Assembly (NCBI RefSeq): GCF_900167475.1
Contig: NZ_LT796768.1
Span: 124,001-188,000, forward strand
Reading direction: 5' to 3'
DNA: 64,000 nucleotides
DNA from: Aeromicrobium choanae
GTDB taxonomy: Bacteria > Actinomycetota > Actinomycetes > Propionibacteriales > Nocardioidaceae
The notes beneath the pieces are model-generated. The model was given only the letters and a program-made list of their open reading frames with translations, ran no database searches and was not told where the DNA came from. A program made the translations under genes and the position numbers. Positions 54,679 to 62,304 of the stretch are shown one piece after another; the stretch's first letter is position 1, and every line of letters starts with the position of its first letter.

Positions 54679-55674
54679 ATGGACATCGGCAACATCATCG
54701 ATGCGGCGTTCTCCAACGCCTTCGGCCCGCAGGCGATCGTGTTCGCGCTCGCCGCGATCGGCCTCAACATCCACTTCGGCTACACCGGACTGCTGAACTT
54801 CGGCCAGGCCGGCTTCATGGCGGTCGGCGCCTACGGCCTCGCGGTCACGATGGTCCGGCTCGACCTGCCGCTGCCCGTGGGCATCGCGGCCGGCCTGCTC
54901 GCGTCGCTGCTGCTGGCCCTGGTGCTCGGCGTACCCACGCTGAGACTCCGGGCCGACTACCTGGCGATCGTCACCATCGCGGCGGCGGAGATCCTGCGCC
55001 TCGTGTTCGGCGCCGTCGAGACCAAGGCCGTGTTCGGCGGCTCGAACGGCCTCAACGGCTTCACCGACACGTGGAACAGCCTCAACCCCTACACCGGCGG
55101 CATCGACGTGGGCTTCGCGTCCTGGGGTCGCAACGACCTGTGGGCCATGACGGTCGGCTGGGCCGTCGTCGCCCTGTGCTGCCTGCTGACCTGGGCGCTC
55201 ATGCGCAGCCCGTGGGGTCGCGTGCTCCGCTCGATCCGCGAGGACGAGGACGCCGTGCGCTCGCTGGGCAAGAACGTCTTCCTCTACAAGATGCAGGCGC
55301 TCATGCTCGGCGGCATGATCGGCGGCCTGGGCGGCATCTTCTACGCCCTCAAGCAGGCCTCGGTCGTCCCGTCGGACTACAGCACCAACCTGACGTTCTT
55401 CGCCTACACGGCACTGCTGATCGGTGGCGCGGCCCGCGTGCTCGGACCCGTCGTCGGCTCGATGATCTTCTGGTTCCTCATCAGTGGCCTCGGCGAGTTC
55501 TTCAGCCAGGCCACCAGTGGCGTCGACCCGCTGATCCCGGCCTCGGTCATGACCGACACGCAGGCCAGCCTGATCCGCTACATCCTCATGGGCCTCGGCC
55601 TCATGCTGCTGATGATCTACCGACCCCAGGGGATCTTCGGCGACCGAAGGGAGATCGCGCTCGATGACCGTTGA
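54679..55674 (+). CDS. livM: Branched-chain amino acid ABC permease LivM
   Basis: 331 residues, starting 1 nt after the livH stop. Inner-membrane permease with about nine helices: ALAAIGLNIHFGYTGLLNFGQ near the N-terminus and the cytoplasmic coupling loop SPWGRVLRSIREDEDAVRSLG, which engages LivG/LivF. The last 11 nt overlap livG. It pairs with LivH to form the membrane channel for leucine, isoleucine, valine or related compounds. Confidence 0.94.
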   Translation: MDIGNIIDAAFSNAFGPQAIVFALAAIGLNIHFGYTGLLNFGQAGFMAVGAYGLAVTMVRLDLPLPVGIAAGLLASLLLALVLGVPTLRLRADYLAIVTIAAAEILRLVFGAVETKAVFGGSNGLNGFTDTWNSLNPYTGGIDVGFASWGRNDLWAMTVGWAVVALCCLLTWALMRSPWGRVLRSIREDEDAVRSLGKNVFLYKMQALMLGGMIGGLGGIFYALKQASVVPSDYSTNLTFFAYTALLIGGAARVLGPVVGSMIFWFLISGLGEFFSQATSGVDPLIPASVMTDTQASLIRYILMGLGLMLLMIYRPQGIFGDRREIALDDR

Positions 55675-56575
55675 CATCACCAGTGCCCGCGAGGCACTCG
55701 CCGCCCTGCCCAACGATCCGGGCGTCAGCAAGCCCGATCCGATCGTGGTGGGCGACGACATCACCCGCACGTTCGGCGGACTCAAGGCCGTCGACGTCCA
55801 GCACGTCGAGATCCAGCGCGGCGTCATCACCGCGCTGATCGGCCCGAACGGCGCCGGCAAGACGACGCTGTTCAACCTGCTCACCGGGTTCGACATCCCC
55901 GACAGCGGCTCGTGGGCGTTCAACGACAGCTCGCTGGCCAAGGTGCCCGCCTACAAGGTGGCGCGCCTGGGCATGGTGCGCACGTTCCAGCTGACCAAGG
56001 TGCTCTCGAAGCTCACGGTCATCGAGAACATGCGCCTCGGTGCCACGGGCCAGCGCGGGGAGAGGTTCTTCCCGTCGATCCTGAAGACGCTGTGGCGTGG
56101 CCAGGAGGACGAGATCACCGCTCGCGCGGACGACCTCCTCGCCCGCTTCAAGCTCGATGCCAAGCGCGAGGACTTCGCCGGCTCGCTGTCCGGCGGTCAG
56201 CGCAAGCTGCTCGAGATGGCACGCGCGCTCATGGTCGACCCCGAGCTGATCATGCTCGACGAGCCGATGGCGGGCGTGAACCCGGCACTCAAGCAGTCCC
56301 TGCTGGGTCACGTGAAGTCGCTGCGCGACGAGGGCCGCACGGTCCTGTTCGTCGAGCACGACATGGACATGGTCCGCGACATCTCCGACTGGGTCATCGT
56401 CATGGCCCAGGGGCAGATCGTCGCCGAGGGCACCCCGGAGGCCGTCATGGCCGACCAGCGCGTCATCGACGCGTACCTGGGCGCCCACCACGACGAGGAC
56501 CTCACCGAGCTGGACGAAGAGCAGCTCGCCGCGCAGGTCGAGGCCGAGATCGAAGCCGAGGAGACCGACAAATGA
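55664..56575 (+). CDS. livG: Branched-chain amino acid ABC ATPase LivG
   Basis: 303 residues. Walker A GPNGAGKTTLFN, the Q-loop near VRTFQLTKVL, signature LSGGQRKLLE, Walker B ELIMLDEPMAGVNP and the H-loop His in FVEHDMDM. The N-terminus has an extension of about 25 residues and the C-terminus an acidic tail of about 30 Glu-rich residues (LTELDEEQLAAQVEAEIEAE), both longer than usual. It overlaps livM by 11 nt and livF by 4 nt. Confidence 0.95.
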   Translation: MTVDITSAREALAALPNDPGVSKPDPIVVGDDITRTFGGLKAVDVQHVEIQRGVITALIGPNGAGKTTLFNLLTGFDIPDSGSWAFNDSSLAKVPAYKVARLGMVRTFQLTKVLSKLTVIENMRLGATGQRGERFFPSILKTLWRGQEDEITARADDLLARFKLDAKREDFAGSLSGGQRKLLEMARALMVDPELIMLDEPMAGVNPALKQSLLGHVKSLRDEGRTVLFVEHDMDMVRDISDWVIVMAQGQIVAEGTPEAVMADQRVIDAYLGAHHDEDLTELDEEQLAAQVEAEIEAEETDK

Positions 56576-57366
56576 GCGACGCCATCCCCACCCCCCAGAC
56601 GCCGGAGGCCGAGCGCCGCAAGCACATCGAGGGCGCCGACGGCGCCGTCGTGCGCGCGGACAACCTCATCGCCGGCTACCTGCCGGGCGTGAACATCCTC
56701 AACGGCGCCGACCTGTACTGCCAGCCCGGCGAGCTGGTCGGCATCATCGGCCCGAACGGCGCCGGCAAGTCCACCTTGCTCAAGGCCCTGTTCGGACTCG
56801 TGAAGATCCACTCGGGCACGGTGCTGCTCGGTGGCGAGGAGATCACGAACAAGCGCGCCGACGTCCTGGTCAGCCAGGGCATCGGGTTCGTCCCCCAGAC
56901 GAACAACGTGTTCCCGAGCCTCACGATCGAGGAGAACCTCGAGATGGGCTGCTACCAGGCTCCCTCGAAGTTCAAGGACCGGTTCGCGTTCGTCACCGAC
57001 CTGTTCCCCACGCTCGGCCAGCGGGCCAAGCAGCGGGCGGGCTCGCTCTCCGGTGGTGAGCGCCAGATGGTGGCGATGGGCCGGGCGCTCATGATGGAGC
57101 CCTCCGTGCTGCTGCTGGACGAGCCCTCCGCGGGCCTGTCCCCCGTCATGCAGGACGAGGTCTTCGTGCAGACCCGCAAGATCAACCAGGCCGGCGTCTC
57201 GATCATCATGGTCGAGCAGAACGCTCGCCGCTGCCTGCAGATCTGCGACCGCGGCTACGTCCTGGACCAGGGCACCACGGCCTACAGCGGCACCGGTCGC
57301 GAGCTGGCGAACGACCCCAAGGTGATCGAGCTCTACCTCGGCACCCTGGGCCGTCAGGCGGGCTGA
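56572..57366 (+). CDS. livF: Branched-chain amino acid ABC ATPase LivF
   Basis: 264 residues from an ATG inside the livG stop. Walker A GPNGAGKSTLLK, signature LSGGERQMVAMG, Walker B VLLLDEPSAGLSP, and MVEQNARRCL carrying the Glu-Gln segment that replaces the usual H-loop motif in LivF proteins. It completes the transporter with LivG. A 19-bp hairpin follows its stop by 19 nt. Confidence 0.95.
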   Translation: MSDAIPTPQTPEAERRKHIEGADGAVVRADNLIAGYLPGVNILNGADLYCQPGELVGIIGPNGAGKSTLLKALFGLVKIHSGTVLLGGEEITNKRADVLVSQGIGFVPQTNNVFPSLTIEENLEMGCYQAPSKFKDRFAFVTDLFPTLGQRAKQRAGSLSGGERQMVAMGRALMMEPSVLLLDEPSAGLSPVMQDEVFVQTRKINQAGVSIIMVEQNARRCLQICDRGYVLDQGTTAYSGTGRELANDPKVIELYLGTLGRQAG

Positions 57367-59562: not shown

Positions 59563-59645
59563 GCCGAGATGGCGGAATGGTAGACGCGATGGTCTCAAAA
59601 ACCATTGTCCGAAAGGGCGTGCGGGTTCGAGTCCCGCTCTCGGCA
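59563..59645 (+). tRNA. tRNA-Leu (CAA anticodon)
   Basis: Acceptor arms GCCGAGA (59563-59569) and TCTCGGC (59638-59644) pair perfectly, with discriminator A at 59645. The anticodon stem ATGGT/ACCAT encloses CTCAAAA, giving anticodon CAA for UUG codons. The long variable arm and the T arm (GCGGG-TTCGAGT-CCCGC) fit a class II tRNA. The 3' CCA is not fully encoded (A-CC-C follows). Six bases downstream begins an inverted repeat. Confidence 0.95.
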
Positions 59646-59651
59646 CCCTGA

Positions 59652-59727
59652 GACTGATCTTTCTACCTTCCGCCACCTGTAGCGACGGAACTTTCGACCT
59701 TCGGGTCGTTCCAACGACATCTTGGTA
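59652..59727 (-). repeat. Left copy of a 76-nt inverted repeat
   Basis: Its reverse complement aligns with 60693-60769 at about 61 of 76 positions with one gap (hand count). Read on the minus strand it starts TACCAAGATGTCG and holds two 19-nt units, GAAGGTCGAAAGTTCCGTC and GAAGGTAGAAAGATCAGTC, 32 nt apart. The inner end runs into the perfect palindrome at 59718-59735. Confidence 0.8.
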
Positions 59728-59735
59728 CCAAGATG
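59718..59735. repeat. 18-nt perfect palindrome at the inner edge of the left repeat
   Basis: CATCTTGGT at 59718-59726 is followed directly by its complement ACCAAGATG. The right copy of the repeat keeps only one arm (TAGTACCAAGATG). A second small hairpin with a TTCG tetraloop (CGACC/GGTCG) lies at 59696-59709. Confidence 0.75.
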
Positions 59736-59827
59736 CGTTTCCACAGGGGGCCTCGGCCGGCACTCACCGTCCACAGCCGGATGCACGCCCCTCCCCGGAA
59801 CGTCTTGCGCGCGCCACGGTCAGCTGC

Positions 59828-60679
59828 ATGGCCGACGTCCTCACCACTGCGCAGGCGAACTCACTCCACGGACGCTCCGCCGTCCGCCACCGGCTCGCGA
59901 CCGGGCGATGGCAACGACCGACTCGTGGCGTCATCGTCACCCACAGTGGCCCCCTCACGGCAGATCAGCGCGAGCGCGTGGTGCTGGCTGCCTGTCCCCC
60001 GGGCTCGGCGCTCGCCGGCCTGACCGCCGCCACGCGCCTCGGGCTCCGAGGATTCGAGCCCAGCCAGGTCCACGTTGTCCTGCCTTCGGGAGCCAAGCGC
60101 CCTTCGACGGCCGCGGTCGTCCACTGGAGCACGATGCTCGGAACGGAGGACGTCCCGGCCAACCGCTCGCCTCGCATGACCAGCCTCGAACGCAGTGTCA
60201 TCGACGCGGCGAGCTGGGCCTCGACGAAGCAAGCAGCTCGGGTCCTCGTCATCGCCGCGTTCCAGCAGCGCCTGACGAATGTCCGTCGCATGCGCGACGC
60301 ACTGAGCCGACGCGGTCCCTGCCGGCATCGCGCAGTCATCATCCAGTCGATCCTCGACGCAGCCGGCGGGATCCAGTCACTGCCCGAGCGCGACTTCGAC
60401 GAGATCCGACTTCTCGCTGGACTCCCCCGACCGAGCCGCCAGGTCAGGGCTGAGGGACAGGACCATCGGTACTACCTCGACGTGTGGTGGGAGGAGTCTC
60501 ACCTCGCCGTCGAGATCCACGGGATCCCCCACCTGGCGGTCGAGCAGTGGAGCGACGACCTGCACCGCACCAACGAGCTGGTGATCGACGGCCGGCGCGT
60601 GCTCGTGTTCTCGTCGTTCGCCATCCGGCACCAACGGGACCTCGTGATCGACCAACTGCGGCGCGCCGCCCGCCCGTGA
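59828..60679 (+). CDS. DUF559-like endonuclease-fold protein with AbiEi-type N-terminal region
   Basis: 283 residues. The N-terminal region (about 1-90: ALTTAQANSLHG-like start, RPTRGVIVTHSG, GSALAGLTAATRLGLRGF) resembles the HTH part of AbiEi-type proteins. The C-terminal region resembles the Vsr-like PD-(D/E)xK fold of DUF559: YYLDVWWEESHLAVEIHG with Asp and Glu at catalytic-type positions, then DDLHRTNELVIDGRRVLVF. Such genes are frequent in actinobacteria and their role is unknown. No AbiEii nucleotidyltransferase partner is present. The gene stands alone between tRNA-Leu and pyk and is flanked by inverted repeats. G+C content looks lower than that of the neighbouring genes. Confidence 0.75.
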   Translation: MADVLTTAQANSLHGRSAVRHRLATGRWQRPTRGVIVTHSGPLTADQRERVVLAACPPGSALAGLTAATRLGLRGFEPSQVHVVLPSGAKRPSTAAVVHWSTMLGTEDVPANRSPRMTSLERSVIDAASWASTKQAARVLVIAAFQQRLTNVRRMRDALSRRGPCRHRAVIIQSILDAAGGIQSLPERDFDEIRLLAGLPRPSRQVRAEGQDHRYYLDVWWEESHLAVEIHGIPHLAVEQWSDDLHRTNELVIDGRRVLVFSSFAIRHQRDLVIDQLRRAARP

Positions 60680-60692
60680 GGAGGGAACGTAG

Positions 60693-60769
60693 TACCAAGA
60701 TGTCGCTGGGACGACCTGAAGGTCTCAAGATGCGTCCCCTCAAGGGTGCCGAAGGTCGAAAGATCCGTC
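60693..60769 (+). repeat. Right copy of the inverted repeat
   Basis: Read on the plus strand it starts TACCAAGATGTCG and contains GAAGGTCTCAAGATGCGTC (60718-60736) and GAAGGTCGAAAGATCCGTC (60751-60769), 33 nt apart; both are followed by CCC. It begins 13 nt after the DUF559-like stop and ends 4 nt before the pyk stop. Confidence 0.8.
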
Positions 60770-60773
60770 CCCG

Positions 60774-62240
60774 TCAGGCGATGGTGGGCGGCGCCTCGTC
60801 GGGGTCGTAGGCCGCGACGACGCGGTTGACCGCGTCGCCCATCTTGTGCACGCGCAGCGCGTTGGTGGAGCCGGGGATGCCCGGAGGGGCACCGGCCACG
60901 ATGACGACGCGGCGGCCCTGCTCGCACCTCTGCTGGCCCAGCAGCTCGCGGTCGACCTGGAGCGCGATCTGGTCGGTGTGGCTGATCTCGGGGGTCAGGA
61001 AGGTCTCCACGCCCCACGTGAGCGCGAGCTGGTTGCGCACGAGCGTGTGCGGCGTGAACGCCAGGACCGGGATCGACGAGCGGTAGCGCGCCATGCGGCG
61101 GGCCGAGTCGCCCGTGGTGGTGAAGGCGACCATCAGGTCGGCCTCGACCGACGCCGCCACTTGGGAGGCGGCCCGGCAGATGATGCCGGTGGTGGTCTTG
61201 GGCTCCCACGTGAACGCGGCCATGCGCGGGAGGCCGTGGTCCTCGGTGGACGCGACGATCCGCGCCATGATCCGCACGGTCTGGATCGGGAAGCGACCCA
61301 CGCTGGTCTCGCCCGAGAGCATCACCGCGTCGGCGCCGTCGAGCACCGCGTTCGCGACGTCGCTGGCCTCGGCGCGGGTGGGCCGCGGTGCCGAGATCAT
61401 CGACTCGAGCATCTGGGTGGCCACGATGACCGGCTTGGCGTTGCGACGCGCCTTCTCGATGATGAGCTTCTGCACGATCGGGACGTCCTCGAGCGGCAGC
61501 TCGACGCCCAGGTCGCCGCGGGCCACCATGAAGCCGTCGAACGCGTCGACGATCTCGTCGAGGTTCGCCACGGCCTGCGGCTTCTCGATCTTGGCGATGA
61601 TCGGGCGGTGGATGCCCTCCTCGTCCATGATCGCGCGCACGTCGGCGGCGTCCTCGGCGCTGCGCACGAACGACAGCGCGATGAAGTCCACATTGGCGCG
61701 CAGCGCCCAGCGCAGGTCGTCGATGTCCTTCTCGCTCATCGCCGGCACGCTGACGTTCACGCCGGGCAGGTTGATGCCCTTGTTGTTGCTGACCTCGCCG
61801 GGCACCTCGACCGTGGTGACGACGTCGGTGTCGGTGACCTCGGTGGCGCGCAGGCGCACCTTGCCGTCGTCGATGAGGATCTCGTCGCCGGCCTGGACGT
61901 CGCCGGGAAGGCCCGAGTAGGTCGTCGAGCACTCGTCGCGGACGCCCTCGACGTCACGCGTGGTGATCGTGAAGCGGTCGCCGAAGTTCAGCTCGTGGGG
62001 TCCGTCGGAGAACCGCCCGAGGCGGATCTTGGGGCCCTGGAGGTCGGCCAGCACGGCAATCGCCTTGCCGGTGGCGTCCGCCGCCTGGCGGACGCGTTCG
62101 AGCCGGCGGAGCTGCTCACTCTGCTCGCCGTGGCTCATGTTGAGCCGAGCCACGTCCATGCCGGCTATCGCCAGCTCGAGGATGCGTTCAGCAGTGTCGG
62201 TCGCGGGTCCCAGGGTGCAGACGATCTTGGCTCTACGCAC
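60774..62240 (-). CDS. pyk: Pyruvate kinase
   Basis: 488 residues from the GTG of MRRAKIVCTLGPAT, chosen because a TAGGGT box lies 7 nt upstream and because the family begins here; longer in-frame starts overlap that box. Converts phosphoenolpyruvate and ADP to pyruvate and ATP. Catalytic features: DVARLNMSHG, LADLQGPKIRLG, PIIAKIEKPQAV (Lys), FMVARGDLGVELP and VATQMLESM. The C-terminal regulatory domain ends in EAPPTIA. A DUF559-like gene and its repeat lie directly downstream. Confidence 0.97.
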   Translation of the reverse strand: MRRAKIVCTLGPATDTAERILELAIAGMDVARLNMSHGEQSEQLRRLERVRQAADATGKAIAVLADLQGPKIRLGRFSDGPHELNFGDRFTITTRDVEGVRDECSTTYSGLPGDVQAGDEILIDDGKVRLRATEVTDTDVVTTVEVPGEVSNNKGINLPGVNVSVPAMSEKDIDDLRWALRANVDFIALSFVRSAEDAADVRAIMDEEGIHRPIIAKIEKPQAVANLDEIVDAFDGFMVARGDLGVELPLEDVPIVQKLIIEKARRNAKPVIVATQMLESMISAPRPTRAEASDVANAVLDGADAVMLSGETSVGRFPIQTVRIMARIVASTEDHGLPRMAAFTWEPKTTTGIICRAASQVAASVEADLMVAFTTTGDSARRMARYRSSIPVLAFTPHTLVRNQLALTWGVETFLTPEISHTDQIALQVDRELLGQQRCEQGRRVVIVAGAPPGIPGSTNALRVHKMGDAVNRVVAAYDPDEAPPTIA

Positions 62241-62247
62241 ATCAGCC

Positions 62248-62253
62248 ACCCTA
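62248..62253 (-). promoter_or_regulatory. Candidate -10 box of pyk (leaderless)
   Basis: TAGGGT, then seven bases, then the GTG at 62240. It matches TANNNT and is the same hexamer as upstream of polA. It decides the start of pyk, since the alternative GTG at 62249 overlaps the box. Confidence 0.45.
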
Positions 62254-62304
62254 GTCCTGTCCCGAACCGAACCGCGAGTCACCTGACCCGCGGCCCGGTC
62301 GGAA

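What the first reader, a model, noticed from the sequence alone, without database searches (positions are those of the whole stretch)
59646..60773. Lone DUF559/AbiEi-like gene bracketed by about 76-nt inverted repeats, exactly filling the tRNA-Leu to pyk gap
Seen directly: 59652-59727 (read on the minus strand) and 60693-60769 (plus strand) align at about 61 of 76 positions. The left copy starts 7 nt after the tRNA and the right copy ends 4 nt before the pyk stop, with one gene between them. Terminal inverted repeats around a single endonuclease-fold gene next to a tRNA suggest a minimal mobile unit, a RAYT/REP-like association or a self-maintaining element. No transposase or integrase is present, so the nuclease-like protein itself would be the candidate mover. 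I know of no description of such a unit; novelty is unverified.
Basis: partly seen in the sequence, partly recalled or inferred. Interest (0 to 1): 0.75.

Follow-up and report, generated by a model that had tools for sequence, protein, structure and literature searches.

The report
Nuclease gene bracketed by dispersed palindromes
A bacterial gene for a DNA-cutting-type enzyme sits between matching palindromic repeats that also lie scattered alone through the genome, and many relatives of this gene in very different bacteria are bracketed in a similar way, which points to a kind of small mobile DNA whose enzyme is not the one known from similar repeats.

Summary
In detail: the arms match at 61 of 77 columns (no random pair as good) and fill the tRNA-Leu/pyk gap. 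It is not a one-off. The protein is an AbiEi-like part plus a DUF559 nuclease-type domain. Matched left/right repeats, mostly differing from copy to copy, flank 27 of the 30 best homologues, 7 of the next 10, and 29 of 34 named loci (overlapping). This genome has ~57-nt palindromic dimers of the window type at 10 places, 8 away from the gene. A close relative has the unit at the same site, another has 11 nt there. Orthologues at one site often have unlike repeats, yet left and right stay matched (within exceeds between in 95 of 112). No RAYT-type transposase in 6 of 6 genomes. Stand-alone DUF559 genes of other phyla: both sides in 15 of 23, one side in 7 more. Against: whether absences are losses or empty sites is open, and repeats do not follow protein identity across sites. 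Best reading: a REP/REPIN-like system whose enzyme is a DUF559 nuclease. That the nuclease moves the repeats is inferred.

The parts
59563..59647 (+). tRNA-Leu(CAA), left neighbour of the unit
   Evidence: ARAGORN, Rfam
59652..59678 (-). outer half unit of the left repeat (minus strand: GGTGGCGGAAGGTAGAAAGATCAGTC)
   Evidence: pattern hit at genome 183652-183667, 1 mismatch
59682..59742 (-). left palindromic dimer of the window type
   Evidence: BLAST hit at genome 183685-183738
59828..60679 (+). 283-aa protein: AbiEi-like part (residues 1-179) and DUF559 / PD-(D/E)XK-type part (about 180-283)
60682..60739 (+). right palindromic dimer of the window type (outer 5' arm partly decayed)
   Evidence: BLAST hit at genome 184680-184739
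60748..60769 (+). outer half unit of the right repeat (GCCGAAGGTCGAAAGATCCGTC)
   Evidence: pattern hit at genome 184754-184769
60774..62282 (-). pyk, right neighbour of the unit

Best explanation
A REP/REPIN-like system built around a DUF559 nuclease. The gene lies between two palindromic dimers; the same dimers lie alone at other sites in the genome. Shown: bracketing, dispersal, presence/absence between close relatives (direction not settled), matched change of left and right repeats, conserved nuclease-type residues, no RAYT. Inferred: the AbiEi-like part of the protein binds its own dimer type and the DUF559 domain nicks or cuts it (perhaps as a hairpin or cruciform, near the outer GACG/CGTC ends), and repair or replication of the cut product copies a dimer, or more rarely the whole bracketed unit, to a new site, or removes it. 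In other phyla a stand-alone DUF559 domain protein would do the same with other palindromes.
For: L-R flank repeats above 17.5, the 99th percentile of 1,884 control pairs, in 29 of 34 loci, 27 of 30, 7 of 10 further ones with match boundaries and 33 of 35 (sets overlap). In this genome 10 window-type places, 8 away from the gene; 6 in G044, 6 in G060, at least 2 in G006, none found in G017 and G042 (only 40 candidates per genome were scored, so counts are lower bounds). Another repeat type: 125 hits in 12 of 49 genus genomes (39 in one), 0 for the reversed pattern, recurrent spacings of 41, 63, 74 and about 104 nt. 11 nt between tRNA and pyk stop in G060; solo dimer of G000:3311624 absent in G044. 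Same-site loci: within-locus match exceeds between-locus match in 95 of 112. E187, D218, E229, H235, D244, R247 invariant in 28 of 28. PF01797: 0 of 6 genomes, while the control rings in 5 of 14. Outside Actinomycetota: both sides in 15 of 23, one side in 7 more; 0 of about 946 control pairs in each of 4 regions of 50 kb reach the observed score. A Vsr-like gene in the same genome has no such repeats (L130).
Against: No transposition or cleavage was observed. Repeat similarity does not follow overall protein identity across different sites (Spearman 0.04; 501 of 2,000 permutations as high). Direction of change is open: at the G000:3311624 site G060 has a short palindrome with the dimer's outer arms (GACGGATCC, a few nt, GGATCCGTC), so the absence in G044 may be a loss; the 11-nt site in G060 carries GACG/CGTC arms and may be a scar; G006 has a weak resemblance to the arms at the pyk site (6 of 300 shuffles as high). 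G060 holds window-type dimers but no window-type gene at pyk. No target-site duplication was recognised. RNAalifold gives no consensus fold for 22 dimers, and pair counts show no compensatory signal. Loci without clear L-R repeats: 3 of 30, 3 of 10 (6 of 10 if the flanks are taken from the first start codon and the stop), 5 of 34, 8 of 23. E. coli ycjD has no L-R match (9.0), only a left self-palindrome of 17.0, and the ycjD-less allele looked at differs by more than the unit.
Confidence: 0.55

Rival explanations
1. The dimers are binding sites (operators or chromosome-organising sites) of the AbiEi-like protein, as AbiEi binds inverted repeats in its own promoter (recalled); another agent or slow recombination scatters them, and the nuclease domain does something else, such as defence.
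Against: Repeats lie on both sides of the gene; stand-alone DUF559 proteins carry similar brackets; nuclease-type residues are invariant.
Confidence: 0.22
2. The repeats are a passive MITE-like or REP family moved by an unrelated transposase, and DUF559 genes merely hitch-hike between them.
For: Solo dimers outnumber gene units; G060 keeps dimers without the window-type gene at pyk; no protein-repeat correlation across sites.
Against: No Y1 transposase domain in 6 of 6 genomes (other transposase classes were not searched); left and right repeats stay matched at most DUF559 copies; the bracketed gene is DUF559 in several phyla.
Confidence: 0.13
3. A homing-type gene: the nuclease cuts dimers or sites that lack the gene, and repair from the occupied copy inserts it; dimers are the homing target.
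For: Nuclease-type domain; same sites occupied across species; a weak homing-endonuclease match for one stand-alone protein (E 1e-4).
Against: It does not by itself explain the spread of gene-free dimers.
Confidence: 0.15
4. Ordinary transcription terminators.
For: Palindromic; the solo dimers whose alignments I read lie in or beside spacers between genes.
Against: Sequence-matched pairs upstream and downstream of one gene, varying from copy to copy, present or absent between close relatives.
Confidence: 0.03

Closest known systems
REP/BIME repeats with RAYT (TnpA-REP) genes, 'REPtrons' (PMC3733652, outline, section 16 and passages read; PMC6006769, passages read)
   Same: Gene bracketed by palindromic repeats, alone or as dimers; dispersed gene-free copies; several repeat types with their own gene.
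   Different: The gene is AbiEi plus DUF559, a PD-(D/E)XK-type nuclease, not an HUH Y1 transposase; repeats end in CGTC(C) or variants, not GTAG; no PF01797 in 6 of 6 genomes tested.
CGTC-tagged REPs (PMC3733652)
   Same: CGTC at the outer end, dimers, mostly intergenic. That paper states that these repeats apparently lack a dedicated transposase.
   Different: Longer units here (about 57 nt per dimer); CGTC pairs with GACG in the dimer; Actinomycetota are not among the 5 phyla that the paper lists for CGTC repeats; most stand-alone DUF559 flanks read here are CCCTC/GGGGAG-type, not CGTC-tagged. Identity of the two groups not established.
IS200/IS605 insertion sequences (recalled)
   Same: Hairpins at both ends, single small gene, no clear target duplication.
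   Different: No Y1 domain; different nuclease type.
AbiE type IV toxin-antitoxin system, AbiEi antitoxin
   Same: AbiEi fold, residues 1-179.
   Different: Fused nuclease-type domain, no AbiEii toxin gene beside it.
Rhizobial intergenic mosaic elements (recalled; papers only seen in listing)
   Same: The S. meliloti brackets resemble them by recollection: about 118-nt palindromic pairs among the 25 half-site hits on pSymB.
   Different: Not compared with the published sequence.

Membership tests
REPtron (REP plus RAYT) | Palindromic repeats on both sides of the gene | tested here: met
REPtron (REP plus RAYT) | Dispersed gene-free copies of the same repeat | tested here: met
REPtron (REP plus RAYT) | Gene encodes an HUH Y1 transposase (PF01797) | tested here: not met
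   Pfam scan of the protein; 0 of 6 genomes, control rings in 5 of 14
REPtron (REP plus RAYT) | GTAG tag at the repeat end | tested here: not met
   ends of the window-type dimers are CGTC(C) or variants
CGTC-tagged REP superfamily | Unpaired CGTC tag with an 8-9 bp stem and 4-5 nt loop | tested here: inconclusive
   CGTC ends seen, but pairing with GACG in the dimer; possible inner hairpins of 7 and 4 bp
DUF559 (PF04480) | Match over the curated cut-off | tested here: met
   21.3 against 20.6 bits in the genome search; 19.7 on the whole protein, just under; own second copy 22.1
PD-(D/E)XK / Vsr-like nucleases | Conserved acidic catalytic set and fold | tested here: inconclusive
AbiE type IV toxin-antitoxin | AbiEi fold | tested here: met
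AbiE type IV toxin-antitoxin | Adjacent AbiEii nucleotidyltransferase toxin | tested here: not met
   neighbours are tRNA-Leu and pyk
Insertion sequence | Target-site duplication at a clean insertion | tested here: inconclusive
   none recognised at two sites, whose polarity is open

The most novel reading that the evidence does not exclude
DUF559 nucleases are the unrecognised movers of a large share of bacterial REP-like palindromes that have no RAYT: a second, independent class of REP systems, spread over at least Actinomycetota, Pseudomonadota, Cyanobacteriota and Deinococcota.
Probability: 0.4. Interest if true: 0.92.

Novelty: new variant of a known kind. Interest (0 to 1): 0.78.

Why it matters
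DUF559 is a widespread family named 'unknown function'. REP-like palindromes are common bacterial repeats, and Di Nocera et al. 2013 (PMC3733652) left open what moves the CGTC class. A repeat-bracketed nuclease family offers a concrete, testable candidate mover, and the presence of DUF559 genes in easily handled bacteria makes the test practicable.

Tried and rejected
Terminators: disfavoured (see rivals; the terminator scan was not run). tRNA-targeted integration: rejected, since copies lie at unrelated sites and the tRNA is intact. RAYT as mover: not found. Protein-repeat covariation across different sites: no signal (33 loci, 472 pairs, 56 same-site pairs dropped). Compensatory pairing within the window-type dimers: no signal; the two-hairpin alternative gives only a weak one (13 of 500 shuffles reach the covariation score). 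E. coli ycjD as a two-sided example: not met, L-R 9.0, left self-palindrome 17.0, right 12.5; its one ycjD-less allele fetched (H78) has other genes beyond sapF, so it is not a clean empty site. Deinococcus: QL22 lacks the gene between paaD and paaZ, but the spacers do not align closely enough to place the ends. The third solo dimer (G000:2657915) lies in a spacer that differs wholly among relatives, so it is uninformative on insertion. Literature: searches in the held open-access library listed no paper that I could see linking DUF559 with REP-like repeats; subscription journals and bioRxiv are not covered. PMC3733652 was seen as outline, section 16 and passages; PMC6006769 and PMC2884548 as passages; the rest as listings only. 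In one search the UP/DOWN labels are swapped for loci whose match is on the minus strand; the tests are symmetric, so counts do not change. Loci overlap in part. One search tested the 30 best of the 63 places; ten more were tested, the other 23 not in those two calls. The broken copy L013 (one TGA) was used in the flank test only and left out of the protein alignment; L038 was left out there too because no usable start was found.

Full report
Check of the observation. The unit 59652-60769 lies between tRNA-Leu(CAA) (59563-59647) and pyk (60774-62282, minus strand). A sliding test along the window with the same geometry has a maximum of 24.0 in 1,199 control placements against 36.5 here. Each arm is one ~57-nt imperfect palindromic dimer plus one outer half unit.

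Homologues and their flanks. 28 of 39 genomes of the genus and order have a match, 63 places in all; the genus is Aeromicrobium by record titles of same-genus contigs of identical length. With 320-nt flanks, left and right match above 17.5 in 27 of the 30 best places (not L011, L035, L038) and, with match boundaries, in 7 of the next 10 loci held (not L024, L027, L028). If in these ten the flanks are taken from the first start codon and the stop instead, only 4 of 10 exceed 17.5. In a partly overlapping set of 34 named loci, 29 of 34 exceed 17.5, the 99th percentile of 1,884 control pairs from the same loci (not L145, L156, L158, L162, L163). That set includes Mumia, other Nocardioidaceae, an Acidothermaceae and an Actinomycetospora genome among the positives, and a Streptosporangiaceae and two Cellulomonas genomes among the negatives. 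The repeats mostly differ from copy to copy, though a few types are shared. In this genome the seven PF04480 places comprise six AbiEi-type paralogues, of which five have clear L-R repeats and one (L128) a borderline one that depends on the start chosen, and one gene that I read as Vsr-like (L130) with none.

Dispersed copies. In this genome window-type dimers lie at 10 places, two of them the arms of the unit; G044 has 6 (two at its gene), G060 6, G006 at least 2; none were found in G017 and G042 (40 candidates per genome scored, so lower bounds; first seen by pattern). The pattern of another copy's repeat (CCCTCATCGTYSGTC) occurs 125 times in 12 of 49 genus genomes (39, 31 and 19 in the richest), with 0 hits of the reversed pattern in all 49 and recurrent spacings of 41, 63, 74 and about 104 nt. 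Ten of these 12 genomes have a gene of the family; the two without (G012, G014) are incomplete or contaminated assemblies; over all 49 genomes 29 have it, so this co-occurrence alone is weak.

Presence and absence. At the tRNA-Leu/pyk site G044 has the gene with its repeats, whereas G060 has 11 nt between the tRNA and the pyk stop codon; G006, G017 and G042 lack the gene too. The solo dimer at G000:3311624 is absent from the spacer of G044, while the solo at G000:1464630 is shared by G000, G044, G060 and G006 and absent in G017 and G042. The direction of change is not settled. At the 3311624 site G060 carries a short palindrome with the dimer's outer arms (GACGGATCC, a few nt, GGATCCGTC), and its pyk site reads CCTGACG-CCC-CGTCAGG when the last base of the tRNA and the start of pyk's stop are included, again with GACG and CGTC arms; both could be scars of losses. 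G006 has a weak resemblance to the arms at the pyk site (score 11.0; 6 of 300 shuffles as high). I saw no target-site duplication.

Concerted change. Genes at one and the same genomic site in different species often have quite unlike repeats, yet within each locus left and right match: within-locus exceeds between-locus similarity in 95 of 112 ordered comparisons (medians 31.5 and 15.8; the comparisons are not independent, and for several of the closest orthologues the order reverses). Against a simple protein-repeat code, across different sites repeat similarity does not follow protein identity (Spearman 0.04, 501 of 2,000 permutations).

No RAYT. PF01797 (Y1 transposase) has no match in 6 of 6 Aeromicrobium genomes, including the three richest in the repeat, while the control search rings in 5 of 14 known genomes. 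Other transposase classes were not searched.

Outside the phylum. A generic DUF559 query found 46 plasmid-collection records, of which I fetched 23 for the flank test. L-R score is 20 or more in 15 of 23; 7 of the other 8 have a self-palindrome of 14 or more on one side; L261 has none by score (flanks of the first 15 are printed). In four 50-kb regions none of about 946 control pairs each reaches the observed score (regions). Two-sided cases include Sinorhizobium meliloti, Sphingomonas, Novosphingobium, Azospirillum lipoferum, Neisseria, Pseudanabaena, Picosynechococcus and Deinococcus; the two gammaproteobacterial records among the 23 are one-sided. Five of five proteins scanned with Pfam match DUF559 over the cut-off, four of them stand-alone. 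The S. meliloti half site occurs 25 times on pSymB, reversed control 0. In E. coli the ycjD gene, between sapF and fabI, is covered with its flanks (at least 80% of 1,401 nt) in 3,333 of 5,426 genomes, and a 71-nt stretch downstream of it has a median of 4 places in the 5,100 of 5,426 genomes with a match; but left and right of ycjD do not match each other, so E. coli is at most a decayed case.

Reading. The anatomy is that of a REP/REPIN system (gene between repeat dimers, dispersed gene-free dimers, matched pairs that change together), but the enzyme is of another type. Shown: bracketing, dispersal, presence/absence, matched change of the two sides. Inferred: that the protein recognises and cuts the dimers and so spreads or removes them. 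Di Nocera et al. (PMC3733652; abstract, section 16 and passages seen) state that CGTC-tagged repeats apparently lack a dedicated transposase and that they looked at transposase genes; whether their repeats are the same as these is not settled here, and the stand-alone DUF559 flanks are mostly of another type.

Novelty. Ten library searches listed no paper that I could see tying DUF559 to such repeats. The library is open-access only, so prior description elsewhere cannot be excluded. I file it as a new variant of a known kind (REP system with a different enzyme); if the nuclease is shown to be the mover it would be a new class of mobile element.

Noticed in passing
L260, L175, L263: Stand-alone DUF559 genes with their palindromes sit inside gene clusters (between paaD and paaZ; between sufB and sufC; between NAD(P) transhydrogenase genes), as if inserted there.
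   Followed up: partly
L274 and 5,426 E. coli genomes: ycjD with its flanks is polymorphic in E. coli: at least 80% of the 1,401-nt query in 3,333 of 5,426 genomes; a palindromic stretch downstream of it recurs at a median of 4 places per genome with a match.
   Followed up: partly
G060: Six window-type dimers in a genome without a window-type gene at the pyk site; possibly orphaned repeats.
   Followed up: no
L003, L032, L034: The reading frame of some homologues appears to run on into the right repeat, so repeat-coded residues would form the C-terminus.
   Followed up: no
window 55550-57040: A direct repeat scoring 24.0 between stretches about 850 nt apart, the highest control in the sliding test; not examined.
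   Followed up: no
G000:C1:307082-307192 (L130): A gene that reads as Vsr-like in the same genome, without flanking repeats; a useful contrast to the AbiEi-DUF559 genes.
   Followed up: partly
window 59828-60679: Orphan AbiEi-DUF559 genes match PADLOC AbiEi models and could be miscalled as toxin-antitoxin antitoxins by automatic annotation.
   Followed up: no
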